Shown here one piece after another: positions 1 to 6,236 of a DNA stretch of 64,000 nucleotides. This DNA comes from Sneathiella limimaris. GTDB lineage: Bacteria > Pseudomonadota > Alphaproteobacteria > Sneathiellales > Sneathiellaceae. The DNA lies in NCBI RefSeq assembly GCF_012932565.1, contig NZ_JABBYJ010000001.1, positions 434,001 through 498,000 of the forward strand, written 5' to 3'. Made by a program: the position numbers and the translations under genes. Position 1 is the first letter of the stretch. Every line of letters starts with the position of its first letter. Below the pieces are notes generated by a model. That model was not told the DNA's origin, did no database searches, and saw only the letters and a list, made by a program, of their open reading frames with translations.

Positions 1-435
1 CTCCCTGCCGATCTGCGCCTGCCCTAGAAGGAGCTTTCCTTCGTTACGCCCCCATTTCACATAGGATTGCAATAAGGGCGTATCTATCCTCCGATCAGCC
101 GCATAGTTGCTTGCTGATGTCGGAAGAATTATGTCCCAGACAAATAGTGATGCCCCGCTTTGCAATACCTTATTTTGGACGTCTGCCATCTGTGGCGTCC
201 ACATTACTTTGGGAAGTCCTGCGAAGGGTGGTGATGCATAAGTCTGTTCATCTATCGCAATAACTGCAACTTCAGTTGAAACAGGGTCCGGGGGAAATGG
301 TAACAGGCTCTCAGTTAAATGCAGGAAATCCAGATCTAGACGATCCAGTTGGTCTAACTTAGGGACCTGCAACATAAATACAATAAGTGCTGATAGCCCG
401 ACGCTTGTCAGTATTTTGACAACTGGTTTACTCAC
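1..435 (-). CDS. CHASE2-domain protein, N-terminal part (cut by window edge)
   Basis: The minus-strand frame runs open from a GTG at 435 to the window edge (145 codons), so only the N-terminus is present. It opens with one hydrophobic segment (about residues 5-22) and continues with a CHASE2-type extracytoplasmic sensor region: a VAVIAIDEQTY stretch followed by a hydrophobic strand containing VWDI. CHASE2 is an extracellular sensor usually joined to cyclases, kinases or other signalling outputs; the output domain is off-window. An AAAGG lies about 11 bases before the GTG. It is the third gene of an operon with the CHAT protein and the small secreted protein upstream, which suggests the three act together at the envelope. 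The family call rests on motif resemblance only. Confidence 0.7.
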   Translation of the reverse strand, partial: MSKPVVKILTSVGLSALIVFMLQVPKLDQLDRLDLDFLHLTESLLPFPPDPVSTEVAVIAIDEQTYASPPFAGLPKVMWTPQMADVQNKVLQSGASLFVWDIILPTSASNYAADRRIDTPLLQSYVKWGRNEGKLLLGQAQIGRE

Positions 436-531
436 TGAAACTGGTACCTTTTAATTTCAACAAGATTGGAAGTTATTTGAATATTGTGAAGGTACTCAGG
501 ATCATAATTCGATCGTGCCCCCCGGAACATA

Positions 532-1227
532 TCAAAACACAATGAGTCTTACCAAATAGGGAGCTTTTCTGGAACGGTCCGCTTTTTCATCAACGATAAA
601 AACGTATTCTTTTTCTCCTGCGGTTACTCGATAGGTTACCCCTGATTTCAAAGCCAAATATTGTTTTCCAAGATCTGCTACTCCCTTTTGGACTGGCACG
701 GACAATGGCTCGTGAAAGCGATCCATATCTTGAATTGTGAAATTTCCCTCAAAATTTCCTGCCTTGAGAACCGGATAAATAGAAAACGCTTTTATAGGTT
801 TGGTCGATTGTTCAGTTTGGTTTGGCGCCCTAAATACAACGGCTGCAGCCTCATTGCTCTTGCTCGTCTGAGAGGAGGTATTGCACTTTAGTTTGCTACG
901 ACTGACCATGCCATTCTTTACGAGACTTTGCTTCTCACCAATTACGACACGCCCACCCGTTATCTTCTCCATGACACAAGAAGCCAAATAACTAAGGGTA
1001 AGTTGCTCATCATCTCTTAGCTCAATTTCAAAGCCGCTTTCCAAAAAATCCAAAACTTTAAGATCTGATCTTTCAGCAGATACATTTTCTACGAGCGCTT
1101 TGACTTCAAATGCGCTGGCAGGAGATAGAATGTATTGAGGAACCAAAATTGCGAAAAATCCAATAAACATCCAACGAGTAGGGAATAGAAGATCAGCCAA
1201 CCTTTTATGTCTTTTATCTCGGGACAT
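532..1227 (-). CDS. Secreted or membrane-anchored protein of unknown function in the CHAT-CHASE2 operon
   Basis: 231 residues. Basic N-terminus, hydrophobic segment at about 19-36 and an ASA signal-peptidase-like site near 37-39, so the rest should be periplasmic. The middle (about 68-115) resembles FecR/SH3-like regions that follow secreted TPR proteins: short beta strands with a cysteine pair (one in LASCVME, one in KLKC). The C-terminal half reads as further beta strands. The start ATG overlaps the stop of the CHAT gene by one base (TGATG), so the two are translationally coupled. I do not recognise the family firmly; the operon suggests a partner or substrate of the CHAT protease. Confidence 0.7.
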   Translation of the reverse strand: MSRDKRHKRLADLLFPTRWMFIGFFAILVPQYILSPASAFEVKALVENVSAERSDLKVLDFLESGFEIELRDDEQLTLSYLASCVMEKITGGRVVIGEKQSLVKNGMVSRSKLKCNTSSQTSKSNEAAAVVFRAPNQTEQSTKPIKAFSIYPVLKAGNFEGNFTIQDMDRFHEPLSVPVQKGVADLGKQYLALKSGVTYRVTAGEKEYVFIVDEKADRSRKAPYLVRLIVF

Positions 1228-4200
1228 CAGCTATTCCCCACGACCATGAACGGAGCCCAGAAAATTGGATGCGCATAAGAAAAAACAGATTTTCCGTCAA
1301 TCTCCATTACACCATTTTCAATTAATTCAATCTTTGTTTTCTGTAGGGCTCTAGCACGATTTTTCTGTTCACCGCTGGCATAAGTTGAAAAGAGCTGCGT
1401 TGTCAGACTTCGGGCACTCGTTGTCTCCACTGGCCATCCTGTTACAAGAAGAGATCTGGCACCAGCATAAAAGAATGCTCTTCCCAAACCGGAGATCGCC
1501 TCCGTACCAGCACCATTTCCAGCGCCAGTGTTGCAAGCTGACAAGATGATCCAATCCGCATCCAGCTTTAAGGACATAATCTCATCCATTGTCAGTAAAC
1601 CATCATTCTGCTCCCTAGTGATCGCCGGTGAAGACAATGCCAGGGCTGGCTGGGTCAAGCCGTTCAATTCACCAGGCACCAGTCCGTGGGTTGCGAAAGC
1701 GATTATTTTCCGATCCCGCAATTGTAACGACTTCACATTTTGCTCGGATGCCTTTGGCCCAAGAAATACATCTGTTTTTAGATCGGCCTTCACGGATTCA
1801 GCAATTGCCAATATTTCAGAATTCGTATCTGGAAGCGGTGGTAAGTCATCAATCTCGTAGCTATTGGTCCGATCTCCACCAGGAGCACTTCGACGATAAA
1901 TCGGTAATCCTCGGAAATTTGTCATGCCCCGTGCTGCAAGAACCGTTTCCGGTGCAGCTTGGCTTGCCTGTTCCGGCTTAAACCATGGATCTCCAAAACC
2001 AGCAAAGGTTAGAGAATTATCTTTCCGCTCAGGCAGTTTGCGAAGAGCGAGAAACGACTCAACACTTGGAATGACCGCTGTAGAATGTGTATTCACTAAC
2101 CAGGGTACAGATCGATAACTGGCAAAAAGTAGATTTTCATCCTTCGGCAACTTGACAGGTGATACAGGTAATGTGGCAAGCGGTATCTGTGCAATTGGGT
2201 TATTTGCAATCGTAAATATGTGATTGCCATTTTTCCAACCTCGCGCAACTGGATCCAACAGGTCCTTATACAAGCTATGAGCTATATCCAGGTCATATTC
2301 TGGGATATCACCCAAAACACTTGCTTTTGGATCCAACGCAGATCTGAGTTGATGCACCCTATCGCTCATCACTGAGCGAGATAAATCAAGCTTTGAAAAC
2401 TCAACTGAACCCTGCTGCTGAAATGCCCAGACGAATGTCTTTGTCTCTCCAACGTGGATCCTTACAATAGCCTCATCAGGCTTCAAAAACTGTTGTGTCT
2501 CTCTAATTGTTGCCGGTTTAGGGTTCACCAATGAAGCATAATCAGGAAAGCGCTTTTCAATCGCCTCCATCAAAGTAGCCCGCGCAGCTCTTAGATCACT
2601 TATTGATTTTCTGAGTTTTAATTCCTCCGCACTTTTTGCGCCGTTCACCAGCGTACTAGACAGCAAACCATAGAGAGCCGAGATTTGTTGTTGAGCGTCC
2701 TGTTCTTCTCTAACCAGACGTTTCAAGTCAGGGTCTTCGACTGATTTGCGCGCTGCCGAACTCGTAACGGCTGATTGAACATCGTGAATTCTCGCGGCAT
2801 TGATAATCTGAAAAGCCTTGGCAATAGATGATGCTGAACGTGTCTCCGTCAGAGCGTCAACATATCCTTCCACAATAAACTGAAAGCGTTTTCCACCTTT
2901 AAAACGAATTTCGTCTTTTTCCGTCTGTCGAGATTTTTGAACCAAAATTGGAAAGACCTGATCAAATATCTTGAGCGCACGGGCGGCTTTTCCTTCCTTC
3001 AACAAAGCTACGGCATAAAGACCCGTTGCCTCAGCAGTATCATAATGCCGCTCACCCAAACGATCCTTCAGGTTTCTAAAAACCTCAGAGGCTATGCCCT
3101 TGGCCGTGAAATAGTCGCCGGTTCCAATCAGCGCAACAGCCCTATCCAGATTATATTTATAGAAACGTCTGTTTTGAACAGGATGATAGGCAGTGAACTT
3201 GTCTATCTCTTCAAATACTTCAAGCGCACTGTTCCAGCGAGAAGCCTCAATAAGCACATTAGCAAGGTACAGTCGGGCCTTGTTGAACGTGATTTCATCT
3301 CTAGTGACTTCTAGATTACGATAGATCTTGAGGACTGTAGTTGCCAGTTTTTCAGCCTCTTTCAACCTGTTTGTCCGAGCTAATACAGGAATAAGGGCTG
3401 AGATCATTTTGGCCGTATAAACCGAATTCCCGCCAAACCTGCCAACTGCAACACGTACAGCATCGCGAGCGGCCACCTCAGCTTCTGCAAATTTATATTG
3501 TCTTAGATAGAGACGCGACATGGTTTCAAGAACATTCATCTTCACCAATTGCCGCGCAGTTCCAAGGTTATAAATTGCCAGTTTTTCGTTACTATCCCGA
3601 TTTTTGCGAATATCCTCGTCTATGATCTGCAGGGCGTTCAGAAGGAAAGCCTCAGAGTTAGAGTATAATCCCTCATCCAGATTTACCCGACTAGTCGCCC
3701 AAAGAACAATGGCTTCACTAAACGGCCCATATTTCTGTGCTGCCTGAGACGATCTAACAGAATTCAGGTAACTTTTAGCTTCACTAAGATTTTCACGGGC
3801 AGCTTCGAAGTCACCAATCTGACTGTGATAGGTCGCCATCGTCGCGTATCTGTTGCTTCTTGCAACCCGATACCCCCCGGGCAACAAATCGAGCGACCAT
3901 TGCCGATACCTGATTGCACTTTTGATATTACCAACTTCTGAGACTGCATGAGAGAGTGACGCAAGCACAGCAGACATTAAAATTTTGTCTTGAGGATTTT
4001 GAGATTTAGCGATCTCCAGATCCTTAACCATCTGGTTTAAACGACCCAGCTCTCCTGCCGCATCTGCACGGCTTTTCAAATTGGTAGCTATTCTGTCGGC
4101 ATTTCCAACCATCGAGATTTCATTGTCCGCGGCAGCTTCCAAGGCCTTCAGCTCGAACTGATTTCGGCTCTCCGAGCGTTCAATCAATTGCGTAAGGTCA

Positions 4201-4358
4201 TCAATAGTTCTTGGCGGTGATGCGAGTTGCTGACGATTATATGCCGCGGCGACCTGTCGGGCTTTTTGAACGTTCACGCTGTTGTCTGTGGAAGTCGTCT
4301 GACACGAAACTAGTAGCATTGCGGCAATTGCCAGCTTGGAAACAAGAAGTATTTTCAA
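1227..4358 (-). CDS. TPR-repeat lipoprotein with C-terminal CHAT caspase-like protease domain
   Basis: 1043 residues. The N-terminus is a lipoprotein signal with lipobox LVSC (lipidated Cys about 19), so the protein should sit on the periplasmic side of a membrane. Residues about 110-480 are helical TPR-like repeats, followed by a helical linker. The C-terminal third (about 700-1040) is a CHAT domain with the caspase-type dyad: His about 891 in FATHG and Cys about 942 in LSACNTGAG, followed by GLGRAFFYAGA. CHAT proteins are cysteine peptidases of the caspase/separase clan, often activated by partners sensed through TPRs. Most studied bacterial CHATs are cytoplasmic (for example the gRAMP/Craspase-associated TPR-CHAT), so lipoprotein export is notable. 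First gene of an operon with a secreted protein and a CHASE2 sensor. Peptidase activity is inferred. Confidence 0.9.
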   Translation of the reverse strand: MKILLVSKLAIAAMLLVSCQTTSTDNSVNVQKARQVAAAYNRQQLASPPRTIDDLTQLIERSESRNQFELKALEAAADNEISMVGNADRIATNLKSRADAAGELGRLNQMVKDLEIAKSQNPQDKILMSAVLASLSHAVSEVGNIKSAIRYRQWSLDLLPGGYRVARSNRYATMATYHSQIGDFEAARENLSEAKSYLNSVRSSQAAQKYGPFSEAIVLWATSRVNLDEGLYSNSEAFLLNALQIIDEDIRKNRDSNEKLAIYNLGTARQLVKMNVLETMSRLYLRQYKFAEAEVAARDAVRVAVGRFGGNSVYTAKMISALIPVLARTNRLKEAEKLATTVLKIYRNLEVTRDEITFNKARLYLANVLIEASRWNSALEVFEEIDKFTAYHPVQNRRFYKYNLDRAVALIGTGDYFTAKGIASEVFRNLKDRLGERHYDTAEATGLYAVALLKEGKAARALKIFDQVFPILVQKSRQTEKDEIRFKGGKRFQFIVEGYVDALTETRSASSIAKAFQIINAARIHDVQSAVTSSAARKSVEDPDLKRLVREEQDAQQQISALYGLLSSTLVNGAKSAEELKLRKSISDLRAARATLMEAIEKRFPDYASLVNPKPATIRETQQFLKPDEAIVRIHVGETKTFVWAFQQQGSVEFSKLDLSRSVMSDRVHQLRSALDPKASVLGDIPEYDLDIAHSLYKDLLDPVARGWKNGNHIFTIANNPIAQIPLATLPVSPVKLPKDENLLFASYRSVPWLVNTHSTAVIPSVESFLALRKLPERKDNSLTFAGFGDPWFKPEQASQAAPETVLAARGMTNFRGLPIYRRSAPGGDRTNSYEIDDLPPLPDTNSEILAIAESVKADLKTDVFLGPKASEQNVKSLQLRDRKIIAFATHGLVPGELNGLTQPALALSSPAITREQNDGLLTMDEIMSLKLDADWIILSACNTGAGNGAGTEAISGLGRAFFYAGARSLLVTGWPVETTSARSLTTQLFSTYASGEQKNRARALQKTKIELIENGVMEIDGKSVFSYAHPIFWAPFMVVGNS

Positions 4359-4697: not shown

Positions 4698-6236
4698 TCA
4701 AACGATGGCTCCACTTTCCACAGATTTAAAAAACCTTTGGCTATCATCACGAATAGCGTTTTGTTTCTCCGTCTCCATACGATCAAAAGTCTTATACATC
4801 ATTGCGATCCGATGATTATTTTGGAGTTTATCACGATTACGGTCCAGAAAATCCCAGTACAAATAGTTAAAAGGGCATGCGTCAGGACCATTCTTTTTGG
4901 TCACTTTGTAACTGCAGCCCTTACAATAATCGGACATTTTATTGATATAGCTACCTCCGGCCGCGTAAGGTTTACTGGCCAGATACCCACCATCTGCAAA
5001 TAAGATCATACCGGACACATTCGGTAGCTCGACCCATTCATAGGCATCCGCATAAACAATCAAGAACCATTCATTCACGTATTTAGGATCAATGCCAGCC
5101 AGCAAGGCAAAGTTTCCAAGTACCATGAGCCGTTGAATATGGTGGGCATAAGCATTCTGTTTTGTTTCGGAAACGCAACAACGCAGACAATTCATTTTTG
5201 TCTCTGATGTCCAGTAAAAATCCGGTAATTGACGCTTCGCCTGAAAGAAATTTTCCGATACATATGCGGGCATTTTGAACCAGTAGATCCCCCGCACATA
5301 TTCACGCCAACCGATAATCTGGCGAATAAAACCCTCAACGGCATTGAGCGGAGCCTTCTTGTTTTTATAGGCACTCTCAGCTGCTTGAACACATTCTAGG
5401 GGAAGCAACAAACCGCAATTTAAGTAAAAGCTGATGTGAGAGTGATACATCCAAGGTTCACCTTCAATCATTGCGTCTTGATAGTCTCCAAAATGATTTA
5501 GTCTTTGTTCGACAAAGCGATCCAATACCTTCAGTGCTTCTTTCCGGGTAACGGCAAAATTAAACGGCTCCAACTCGCCAAAATGCTCTTTGAAGCGATC
5601 CGAGACAAGAGAGAGAACCTCCTGTGTGATGTCATCTCCATCACAGGTATAAGGCGACGGAATGTTAAGCCCTTCTCTTGGTGGCTTACGGTTTTCGCTA
5701 TCATAGTTCCATTGTCCACCTTCCGGTTTATCGCCTTGCATTAGGATGTCGTGCATTTTTCGCATTTCGCGATAGAAATACTCCATGCGCAGATTTTTTC
5801 GGCCCTTTGCCCACTCTGCGAATTCATCCTGTGTGCATAAAAAGCGTGTATCCTCTCTTATCTCGACAGGTAGGCCAAACTCTTCCGACCAATTCTGTAT
5901 GTCTAGCAACACTCTGTATTCACTGGGGTGGGTAACGATAATCCGACTGATAGAGTGTCTTTGCAGAACTCGTCCAACTTCACCTTTGAAGGATCCGCAA
6001 TTCTCAGGGTCGTCTAATTTTGTATACTCAACTTCATACCCATTCTGCCTGAGCTCCCTGGCAAAATGCCTCATAGCGGAAAACAAAAAGGCAATTTTCT
6101 TCTTATGATGCCTCACATAAGAGGCTTCCTCCCATACCTCACACATTAAAATTAGATCCGTTTTAGGATTATGATCTTTAAGGCTGGAGATAGACTCCGA
6201 AAGCTGGTCCCCTAAAACCAATCTTAGTGTTTTCAT
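4698..6236 (-). CDS. phrB: Iron-sulfur cryptochrome/photolyase (PhrB/CryPro type, probable (6-4) photolyase)
   Basis: 512 residues, typical for the iron-sulfur bacterial cryptochrome/photolyase family. The N-terminus (LRLVLGDQLS) starts the Rossmann-like domain that binds the lumazine antenna; the helical FAD domain follows. Four cysteines fall at residues 350, 438, 441 and 454 by my count, the same numbers as the [4Fe-4S] ligands of Agrobacterium PhrB. The family repairs (6-4) pyrimidine photoproducts with light and FAD. The gene is 78 bases downstream of a short-chain reductase on the same strand, a likely operon. Confidence 0.92.
   Translation of the reverse strand: MKTLRLVLGDQLSESISSLKDHNPKTDLILMCEVWEEASYVRHHKKKIAFLFSAMRHFARELRQNGYEVEYTKLDDPENCGSFKGEVGRVLQRHSISRIIVTHPSEYRVLLDIQNWSEEFGLPVEIREDTRFLCTQDEFAEWAKGRKNLRMEYFYREMRKMHDILMQGDKPEGGQWNYDSENRKPPREGLNIPSPYTCDGDDITQEVLSLVSDRFKEHFGELEPFNFAVTRKEALKVLDRFVEQRLNHFGDYQDAMIEGEPWMYHSHISFYLNCGLLLPLECVQAAESAYKNKKAPLNAVEGFIRQIIGWREYVRGIYWFKMPAYVSENFFQAKRQLPDFYWTSETKMNCLRCCVSETKQNAYAHHIQRLMVLGNFALLAGIDPKYVNEWFLIVYADAYEWVELPNVSGMILFADGGYLASKPYAAGGSYINKMSDYCKGCSYKVTKKNGPDACPFNYLYWDFLDRNRDKLQNNHRIAMMYKTFDRMETEKQNAIRDDSQRFFKSVESGAIV

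What the first reader, a model, noticed from the sequence alone, without database searches (positions are those of the whole stretch)
1..4358. Exported CHAT-protease lipoprotein in an operon with a CHASE2 sensor
The CHAT protein has a lipobox and TPR-like repeats, and the two following genes encode a secreted protein and a CHASE2 sensor. Known CHAT systems studied in detail are cytoplasmic. A caspase-like protease outside the cytoplasm, coupled by TGATG overlap to a secreted partner and followed by an extracellular sensor, would be an undescribed envelope signalling or defence module. Function is inference; the domains are seen.
Basis: partly seen in the sequence, partly recalled or inferred. 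Interest (0 to 1): 0.7.

Follow-up and report, generated by a model that had tools for sequence, protein, structure and literature searches.

The report
Exported CHAT protease with cyclase receptor
A bacterial operon encodes a caspase-like protease that appears to be sent outside the cytoplasm, a small secreted partner, and a membrane receptor with a cyclic-nucleotide-making domain; the set recurs in other bacteria, sometimes with another protease type, which points to a protein-cutting step linked to a receptor in the cell envelope.

Summary
On the minus strand lie a 1043-aa TPR-CHAT lipoprotein (4358..1227), a 231-aa apparently secreted protein ('MID', 1227..532, TGATG overlap) and a CHASE2 gene that leaves the window; read on in the genome, it is a 696-aa CHASE2 receptor with a class III nucleotide-cyclase domain. 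CHAT lies within 6 kb of 13 of 57 MID genes (0.20 expected); a CHASE2 cyclase lies by MID in 36 of 48 loci. New here: MID is a family with two invariant cysteines and no Pfam match, and its neighbourhoods repeatedly hold an exported-looking peptidase of another type: CHAT (12 of 48 loci), caspase C14 (9) or M48 (6). His891/Cys942 are invariant in 57 of 57 homologues; the model resembles Craspase TPR-CHAT and separase. Best reading: an envelope signalling module in which a protease acts on or through MID to tune the receptor. Cleavage, substrate and sign are inferred; in two known systems with a similar partner, deleting the partner did not disturb signalling. Secreted-partner-plus-CHASE2 operons are known; no paper found here describes the exported CHAT member. 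Defence has no support.

The parts
1227..4358 (-). TPR-CHAT lipoprotein, 1043 aa, TTG start
   Evidence: model pLDDT 86.8, pTM 0.86
4302..4313 (-). lipobox LVSC (residues 16-19), Cys19, +2 Gln (outer-membrane sorting by the E. coli +2 rule, recalled)
   Evidence: read directly; rule-based survey of homologues
2940..4205 (-). helical TPR array, about residues 52-473
   Evidence: TPR_12; helices in the model
1233..2285 (-). CHAT domain, residues 692-1042
   Evidence: PF12770 148.3 bits
1686..1688 (-). codon of His891 (ATHG)
   Evidence: invariant in 57 of 57
1533..1535 (-). codon of Cys942 (LSACNT)
   Evidence: invariant in 57 of 57
532..1227 (-). MID: apparently secreted two-domain beta protein, 231 aa, TGATG-coupled to CHAT
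   Evidence: model
976..978 (-). MID Cys84
   Evidence: 34 of 34 aligned members
883..885 (-). MID Cys115
   Evidence: 34 of 34 aligned members
829..831 (-). MID Arg133, in the low-confidence linker 118-141; candidate cleavage site (inference)
   Evidence: 33 of 34; pLDDT below 50 for 118-141
1..435 (-). N-terminal 145 aa of the CHASE2 receptor cyclase; the gene continues 1656 bases beyond the window (L002 10435..8345, 696 aa)

Best explanation
An envelope signalling module. Shown by sequence: a TPR-CHAT protein with an export signal (lipobox, probably outer membrane) and conserved His/Cys dyad; a translationally coupled, apparently secreted partner (MID: two predicted beta domains, two invariant cysteines); and an inner-membrane CHASE2 receptor with a class III cyclase domain. 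Inferred: MID is the hub between protease and receptor. The TPR array recognises MID or a ligand, the CHAT protease (in other species an exported C14 or M48 peptidase) cuts it in the periplasm, most plausibly in the linker near conserved Arg133, and the changed MID alters CHASE2 and thereby cyclic-nucleotide synthesis. Sign, stimulus and downstream regulator are unknown.
For: Domains and dyad; model like Csx29/TPR-CHAT (7y9x_B Z 27.5, rmsd 8.5, 518 aligned) and, over residues 505-1043, separase (5fby_A Z 24.2, rmsd 3.5, 326 aligned). CHAT within 6 kb of 13 of 57 MID genes, 0.20 expected; C14 of 6 of 51, 0.39 expected. CHASE2 cyclase at 36 of 48 MID loci, one of them cut at a contig end. Peptidase swap: CHAT 12, C14 9, M48 6 of 48 loci. 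MID with C14 but without cyclase in L040, L051, L054, and MID with cyclase but no peptidase seen in others, so MID is the shared part. MID-linked CHATs (15 rows) need at least 10 label changes on a tree of 84 CHATs, 7 forced by starred branches. CHAT also near a CHASE2 cyclase where no MID was found: L154, L158, L220. By analogy: S. meliloti CyaD1 without CHASE2 makes cAMP constitutively (PMC5498481 passage); its CHASE2 cyclases respond to a plant protein through an outer-membrane protein (PMC13001267 passage).
Against: No biochemical data; dyad geometry not measured. In both genetic precedents the partner was dispensable for what was tested: smc02177 mutants kept plant-signal perception (PMC5498481 section 17) and the mtxA deletion was indistinguishable from wild type (PMC4439547 section 16). 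Most CHAT relatives have no MID seen: 73 of 80 loci. In 21 of 48 MID loci no peptidase was seen. Arg133 is conserved also in MID proteins without a peptidase seen, so it may be structural. CHAT and MID are in 1 of 24 genomes of the own genus. The own cyclase has Arg where 40 of the 42 other aligned cyclases have Lys. Pure TPR proteins also reach Z 20-25 against the model, so part of the Craspase score is the TPR array. The peptidase swap was noticed post hoc.
Confidence: 0.45

Rival explanations
1. The module signals, but CHAT acts as a binding scaffold or sensor, not by cutting: the TPR-CHAT shell binds MID and holds CHASE2 in one state.
For: The model also matches the transmembrane anti-sigma factor DdvA (8rw5, Foldseek E 2.5e-10), a regulator. 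TPR arrays are binding surfaces.
Against: His891/Cys942 invariant in 57 of 57. The neighbour is in other loci a peptidase of another type with its motifs: C14 His and Cys motifs in 5 of 6 checked (the sixth, L057, is a fragment without them), M48 HExxH in 5 of 5 checked.
Confidence: 0.22
2. CHAT is merely a neighbour; MID and the CHASE2 cyclase form the functional pair.
For: The pair without CHAT is the commoner form: 36 of 48 loci have MID with the cyclase, 12 have CHAT.
Against: 13 of 57 against 0.20 expected (a simple density null that ignores contig ends and shared ancestry), in several gene orders, and other peptidases in the same place.
Confidence: 0.16
3. The proteins serve secretion or maturation of surface proteins: CHAT processes an exported adhesin and the cyclase coordinates its expression.
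For: MID and the CHASE2 cyclase are followed by ShlB/FhaC in Azospirillum and by ShlB plus a 1832-aa TPS-domain protein in L047.
Against: Nothing of that kind was recognised by eye beside the window's operon; only these two loci were seen with it.
Confidence: 0.12
4. An anti-phage or abortive-infection system (caspase plus cyclase, Pycsar-like).
For: The cyclase domain matches PADLOC PycC models (best E 4.4e-28).
Against: The match covers only the class III catalytic domain; CHAT and MID match no PADLOC model at E up to 1; no viral relative confirmed; the protease appears exported.
Confidence: 0.05

Closest known systems
Craspase TPR-CHAT (Csx29) of type III-E CRISPR
   Same: TPR array plus CHAT protease; best structural match (7y9x_B Z 27.5)
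   Different: Csx29 works with Cas7-11 and crRNA (recalled and paper listings); this one has an export signal, with MID and a CHASE2 cyclase beside it
Separase
   Same: Protease-half fold (5fby_A Z 24.2, rmsd 3.5 over 326 residues, 14% identity)
   Different: Eukaryotic, cleaves cohesin (5fc3 title)
S. meliloti cyaD1 region (Clr cascade)
   Same: CHASE2 adenylate cyclase near genes for a predicted non-cytoplasmic FecR-domain protein (SMc02177) and a periplasmic protein (SMc02178) (PMC5498481: passages, sections 16, 17, 20)
   Different: No CHAT mentioned there; MID does not pass as FecR; smc02177 was not needed for signal perception
Magnetospirillum mtxA and the following CHASE2 cyclase gene
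   Same: Gene for a protein with signal peptide, beta region and Ig-like domain followed by a CHASE2 cyclase gene (PMC4439547: abstract, passages, sections 15, 16); MID C-domain is also Ig/FnIII-like
   Different: MtxA has a C-terminal TPR; no sequence link to MID found; no protease mentioned; deletion without phenotype
Burkholderia BiofilmReg operon
   Same: Secreted LysM-FecR protein followed by a CHASE2 receptor (PMC5192318, passages)
   Different: Histidine-kinase output, FecR partner, no protease
Metacaspase-CHASE2 fusion of Trichodesmium erythraeum
   Same: A caspase-fold domain joined to a CHASE2 receptor (PMC3501461, passages)
   Different: One fused protein with the metacaspase predicted in the cytoplasm; C14, not CHAT; no cyclase
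DdvA transmembrane anti-sigma factor
   Same: Structural match to the CHAT model (8rw5, Foldseek E 2.5e-10)
   Different: An anti-sigma factor; that it carries a periplasmic TPR-CHAT-like part is recalled, only PDB titles were seen

Membership tests
CHAT (PF12770) | profile match above curated cut-off | tested here: met
   148.3 bits, cut-off 24
CHAT (PF12770) | His/Cys catalytic dyad | tested here: met
   His891, Cys942 in 57 of 57; geometry not measured
CHAT (PF12770) | peptidase activity | not testable with these tools
   needs an assay
Craspase / type III-E | Cas7-11 and Csx30 partners | not tested
   no Cas model was run on the neighbours
CHASE2 receptor cyclase | CHASE2 and class III cyclase domains in one protein | tested here: met
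   57.4 and 83 bits, both over cut-off
CHASE2 receptor cyclase | catalytic residues of the cyclase | tested here: inconclusive
   FSD, GD and YT..GD motifs present; Arg in place of the usual Lys
Lipoprotein (signal peptidase II) | basic and hydrophobic region, then lipobox with Cys | tested here: met
   LVSC, home-made rule; no dedicated predictor available
FecR (PF04773) | profile match of MID | tested here: not met
   no FecR match in 34 members at E up to 1; hhalign with the N-domain alone 4% probability
MtxA | sequence similarity of MID to MtxA (PDB 4Z29) | tested here: inconclusive
   not among the 7 PDB sequences matched by the A1 profile at E up to 10; MtxA itself was not aligned
Pycsar | PycC cyclase | tested here: inconclusive
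   PADLOC PycC models match only the catalytic domain
Pycsar | adjacent effector gene | not tested
   genes beyond the three were not scanned with PADLOC

The most novel reading that the evidence does not exclude
A bacterial regulated-proteolysis pathway in the periplasm: an outer-membrane caspase-like (separase-fold) protease cuts a dedicated secreted messenger, and the product gates a receptor cyclase, turning an envelope event into a cyclic-nucleotide signal. Unrelated exported proteases (CHAT, C14, M48) have been plugged into the same messenger-receptor pair.
Probability: 0.27. Interest if true: 0.82.

Novelty: new variant of a known kind. Interest (0 to 1): 0.56.

Why it matters
Signals recognised by CHASE2 domains are described as unknown (PMC5192318, passage). 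A dedicated secreted messenger with a dedicated exported protease would make the activation mechanism directly testable. It would also place caspase-like proteases in bacterial envelope signalling, a role different from CRISPR defence or cell death.

Tried and rejected
Defence reading: PADLOC gave only cyclase-domain matches; a viral-contig scan gave 21 pattern matches and no confirmed relative.

MID as a FecR protein: hhalign gave 25.9% (9 FecR rows) and 75.9%, the latter over signal peptide and a short stretch; the N-domain alone gave 4.0%, the C-domain 0.15%. FecR proteins do sit by CHASE2 in other loci: 5 of 47 FecR places lie within 1 kb of a CHASE2 place listed (that list was cut, so a lower bound).

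MID by structure: no Foldseek match at E 0.001 or below; C-domain Ig/FnIII-like, Z at most 6.7, a common arrangement; rows covered residues 143-231, so the N-domain is barely tested and was not folded alone.

SMb20495 of S. meliloti as a CHAT protein: no PF12770 match on pSymB (record unannotated).

DdvA: the one paper looked into mentions it as an anti-sigma factor (PMC4374960, passages); searches; it is not among the rows shown by the PDB sequence searches (one search showed 60 of 77).

Promoter/terminator scan: no excess over shuffles (9 against mean 10.1; 7 against 7.0).

Literature: no paper holds both 'CHAT domain' and 'CHASE2'. Other searches. Only open-licence PMC papers are held.

Full report
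WHAT IS THERE. The finding is real. Three minus-strand genes run from 4358 to beyond the left end of the window. The first encodes a 1043-aa protein with a lipobox (LVSC, Cys19, +2 Gln), a TPR array and a C-terminal CHAT domain (PF12770 148.3 bits, cut-off 24). Its stop codon shares a base with the start of the second gene (TGATG), a 231-aa protein with an N-terminal hydrophobic signal, called MID here. After 96 bases comes the third gene. Only 145 residues of it are in the window; in the genome (window = G000:C1:434001-498000) it is 696 aa with CHASE2 (57.4 bits, cut-off 26.3) followed by a class III cyclase domain (83 bits, cut-off 21.9). The CHAT gene is the only PF12770 match in the genome at E 0.001.

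IS CHAT A PROTEASE, AND IS IT EXPORTED? His891 and Cys942 are invariant in 57 of 57 aligned relatives (56 of 69 ORFs of 1000-1200 aa were kept by an identity filter, plus the window protein). The model (pLDDT 86.8, pTM 0.86) matches Craspase TPR-CHAT (7y9x_B Z 27.5, rmsd 8.5, 518 residues) and separase (5fby_A Z 24.2, rmsd 3.5, 326 residues, model 505-1043). Pure TPR proteins also score Z 20-25 there, so the separase match is the better pointer to the protease half. Foldseek ranks separase first (E 2.6e-11) and the transmembrane anti-sigma factor DdvA sixth (E 2.5e-10). Dyad distances were not measured. Export: of 89 CHAT ORFs over 800 aa, my rules called 23 lipobox, 55 signal-peptide-like and 11 none. 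Five of the 11 run off the contig end, and L144 has an evident lipobox that the rule missed; on the other side L190, also cut at its start, was called signal-like. The same rules on residues 300-430 of the same proteins gave 0 lipobox, 9 signal-like, 1 membrane-like; shuffled N-termini gave on average 0.25, 21.9 and 5.0. So the lipobox calls are specific and the signal-peptide calls loose. Some loci occur twice under two ids (L036/L142, L052/L146).

THE SECRETED PARTNER. MID homologues were found in 48 of 385 genomes of the class by profile (41 by single sequence). In 34 aligned members Cys84 and Cys115 are invariant and Arg133 is in 33. No Pfam family matches reproducibly: nine families hit one member each, best E 0.024. 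The model has two beta domains (about 44-112 and 145-231) joined by a linker with pLDDT below 50 (mean pLDDT 76.2, pTM 0.42, 8 sequences); the second domain is Ig/FnIII-like (Z up to 6.7). MID is not shown to be FecR.

CO-OCCURRENCE. I took 48 MID loci: the own one and the 47 fetched, i.e. the hits; places found only by profile were not fetched. A CHASE2 cyclase is by MID in 36 of 48, one of them (L070) cut at the contig end; some of the other 12 are cut or broken (L038, L073 short contigs; L068 with an internal stop). CHAT is by MID in 12: L002, L036, L037, L039, L043, L044, L045, L048, L052, L053, L055, L061. Gene order varies: CHAT upstream, downstream, convergent or divergent. Over all 57 MID places, CHAT lies within 6 kb of 13, expected 0.20 from CHAT density (a simple null that ignores contig ends and common descent). 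In the other direction, of 80 CHAT loci from named genomes (best 80 of 556), 7 have MID and a CHASE2 cyclase, and 3 more a CHASE2 cyclase where no MID was found (L154, L158, L220); several of these contigs are only a few kb. On a tree of 84 CHAT rows (quick method, simple model) the 15 MID-linked rows need at least 10 label changes, 7 forced by starred branches; shuffled labels average 14.0. Rows on short contigs may hide a MID, which would inflate that number. Still, the link was gained or lost more than once.

PEPTIDASE SWAP. Nine of the 48 loci have a C14 caspase-domain protein within a few genes (L035, L040, L051, L054, L080; WD40-C14 proteins in L060, L062, L063, L065, all of one genus code). 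In L054 the MID frame is only half length (111 aa). C14 lies within 6 kb of 6 of 51 MID places, 0.39 expected; five of the six are the first five named, the sixth is G031 (L073, 5.9 kb away); the WD40-C14 ones were not listed by that genome search. Six loci have an M48 peptidase directly after the cyclase (L069, L071, L072, L074, L077, L079). N-termini show signal peptides, a lipobox (L054) or Tat-like RR motifs by eye. C14 His and Cys motifs were present in 5 of 6 checked, not in the fragment L057, which is not counted among the nine; HExxH in 5 of 5 M48 checked; the WD40-C14 motifs were not checked. Together 27 of 48 loci have a peptidase nearby; in 21 none was seen, but not every neighbour was scanned. 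The pattern was noticed post hoc and no M48 background rate was computed. In L040, L051 and L054 MID sits with a caspase but no cyclase was seen, so MID is the common part.

A SECOND CONTEXT. In 24-25 of the 80 CHAT loci (Polynucleobacter, Bradyrhizobium, Afipia and others) CHAT is followed by an apparently secreted protein of about 145 aa and a membrane protein of about 260 aa with an N-terminal CxxC...CxxC ribbon; one of each was scanned and neither matched Pfam. The layout (exported CHAT, secreted partner, membrane protein) is parallel.

MECHANISM. Shown: export signals, domains, conservation, linkage. Inferred: that CHAT cuts MID, that Arg133 in the flexible linker marks the site, and that MID controls CHASE2. 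By analogy: S. meliloti CyaD1 lacking CHASE2 produces cAMP constitutively (PMC5498481, passage), and its CHASE2 cyclases respond to a plant protein via an outer-membrane protein (PMC13001267, passage). Against: the FecR-domain neighbour smc02177 was not needed for that perception (PMC5498481 section 17), deletion of mtxA had no visible phenotype (PMC4439547 section 16), most CHAT loci show no MID, Arg133 is conserved also where no peptidase was seen, and the own cyclase has Arg where 40 of 42 others have Lys (L049 has Arg, L056 Glu), so its substrate and activity need testing.

KNOWN OR NEW. Secreted-partner-plus-CHASE2-receptor operons are known: mtxA (PMC4439547: abstract, passages, sections 15 and 16), the S. 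meliloti cyaD1 region (PMC5498481: passages, sections 16, 17, 20), Burkholderia BiofilmReg (PMC5192318, passages). PMC3501461 (passages) reports bacterial metacaspases with N-terminal helices that may be signal peptides, and one metacaspase-CHASE2 fusion in Trichodesmium. I found no paper holding both 'CHAT domain' and 'CHASE2'. Hence: a new variant of a known kind. CHAT and MID are in 1 of 24 genomes of the own genus (some of these genomes are incomplete), so the module was acquired or lost there.

Noticed in passing
L162 13109-14337, and 24-25 of the 80 loci L142-L221: Second CHAT context: exported CHAT, then a 145-aa secreted-looking protein and a 260-aa zinc-ribbon-like membrane protein; one of each scanned, no Pfam match.
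   Followed up: partly
L002 8155..4711 (left of the window): A same-strand run after the cyclase: thermostable-hemolysin family protein (PF12261), then AMP-ligase-like, TenA-like and SDR-like proteins (by eye); looks like a biosynthetic cluster.
   Followed up: no
window 4698-6236 minus strand: A 512-aa protein that looks by eye like a photolyase-related protein, next to the operon.
   Followed up: no
L060 6024-8384, L062 11532-13862, L063 6101-8473, L065 5926-8265: Proteins with WD40 repeats and a C14 caspase domain near MID and the CHASE2 cyclase, with signal-like N-termini by eye.
   Followed up: partly
L220 8146-10011: A papain-family (PF00112) protein with DUF4384 between CHAT and a CHASE2 cyclase.
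   Followed up: no
L047 12264-19499 and L223 8692-12569: Two-partner secretion genes (ShlB; in L047 also a TPS-domain protein) directly after MID and the CHASE2 cyclase.
   Followed up: partly
L041, L046, L050, L058: MID copies with no cyclase or peptidase recognised nearby, in conserved synteny beside ABC-transporter and P-type-ATPase-like genes (by eye) in one genus code; these genomes hold a second MID with a CHASE2 cyclase.
   Followed up: no
L225 1111-9356 (Pseudosulfitobacter plasmid): A CHAT gene in a run with a caspase-family and a serine-protease gene, as annotated.
   Followed up: no
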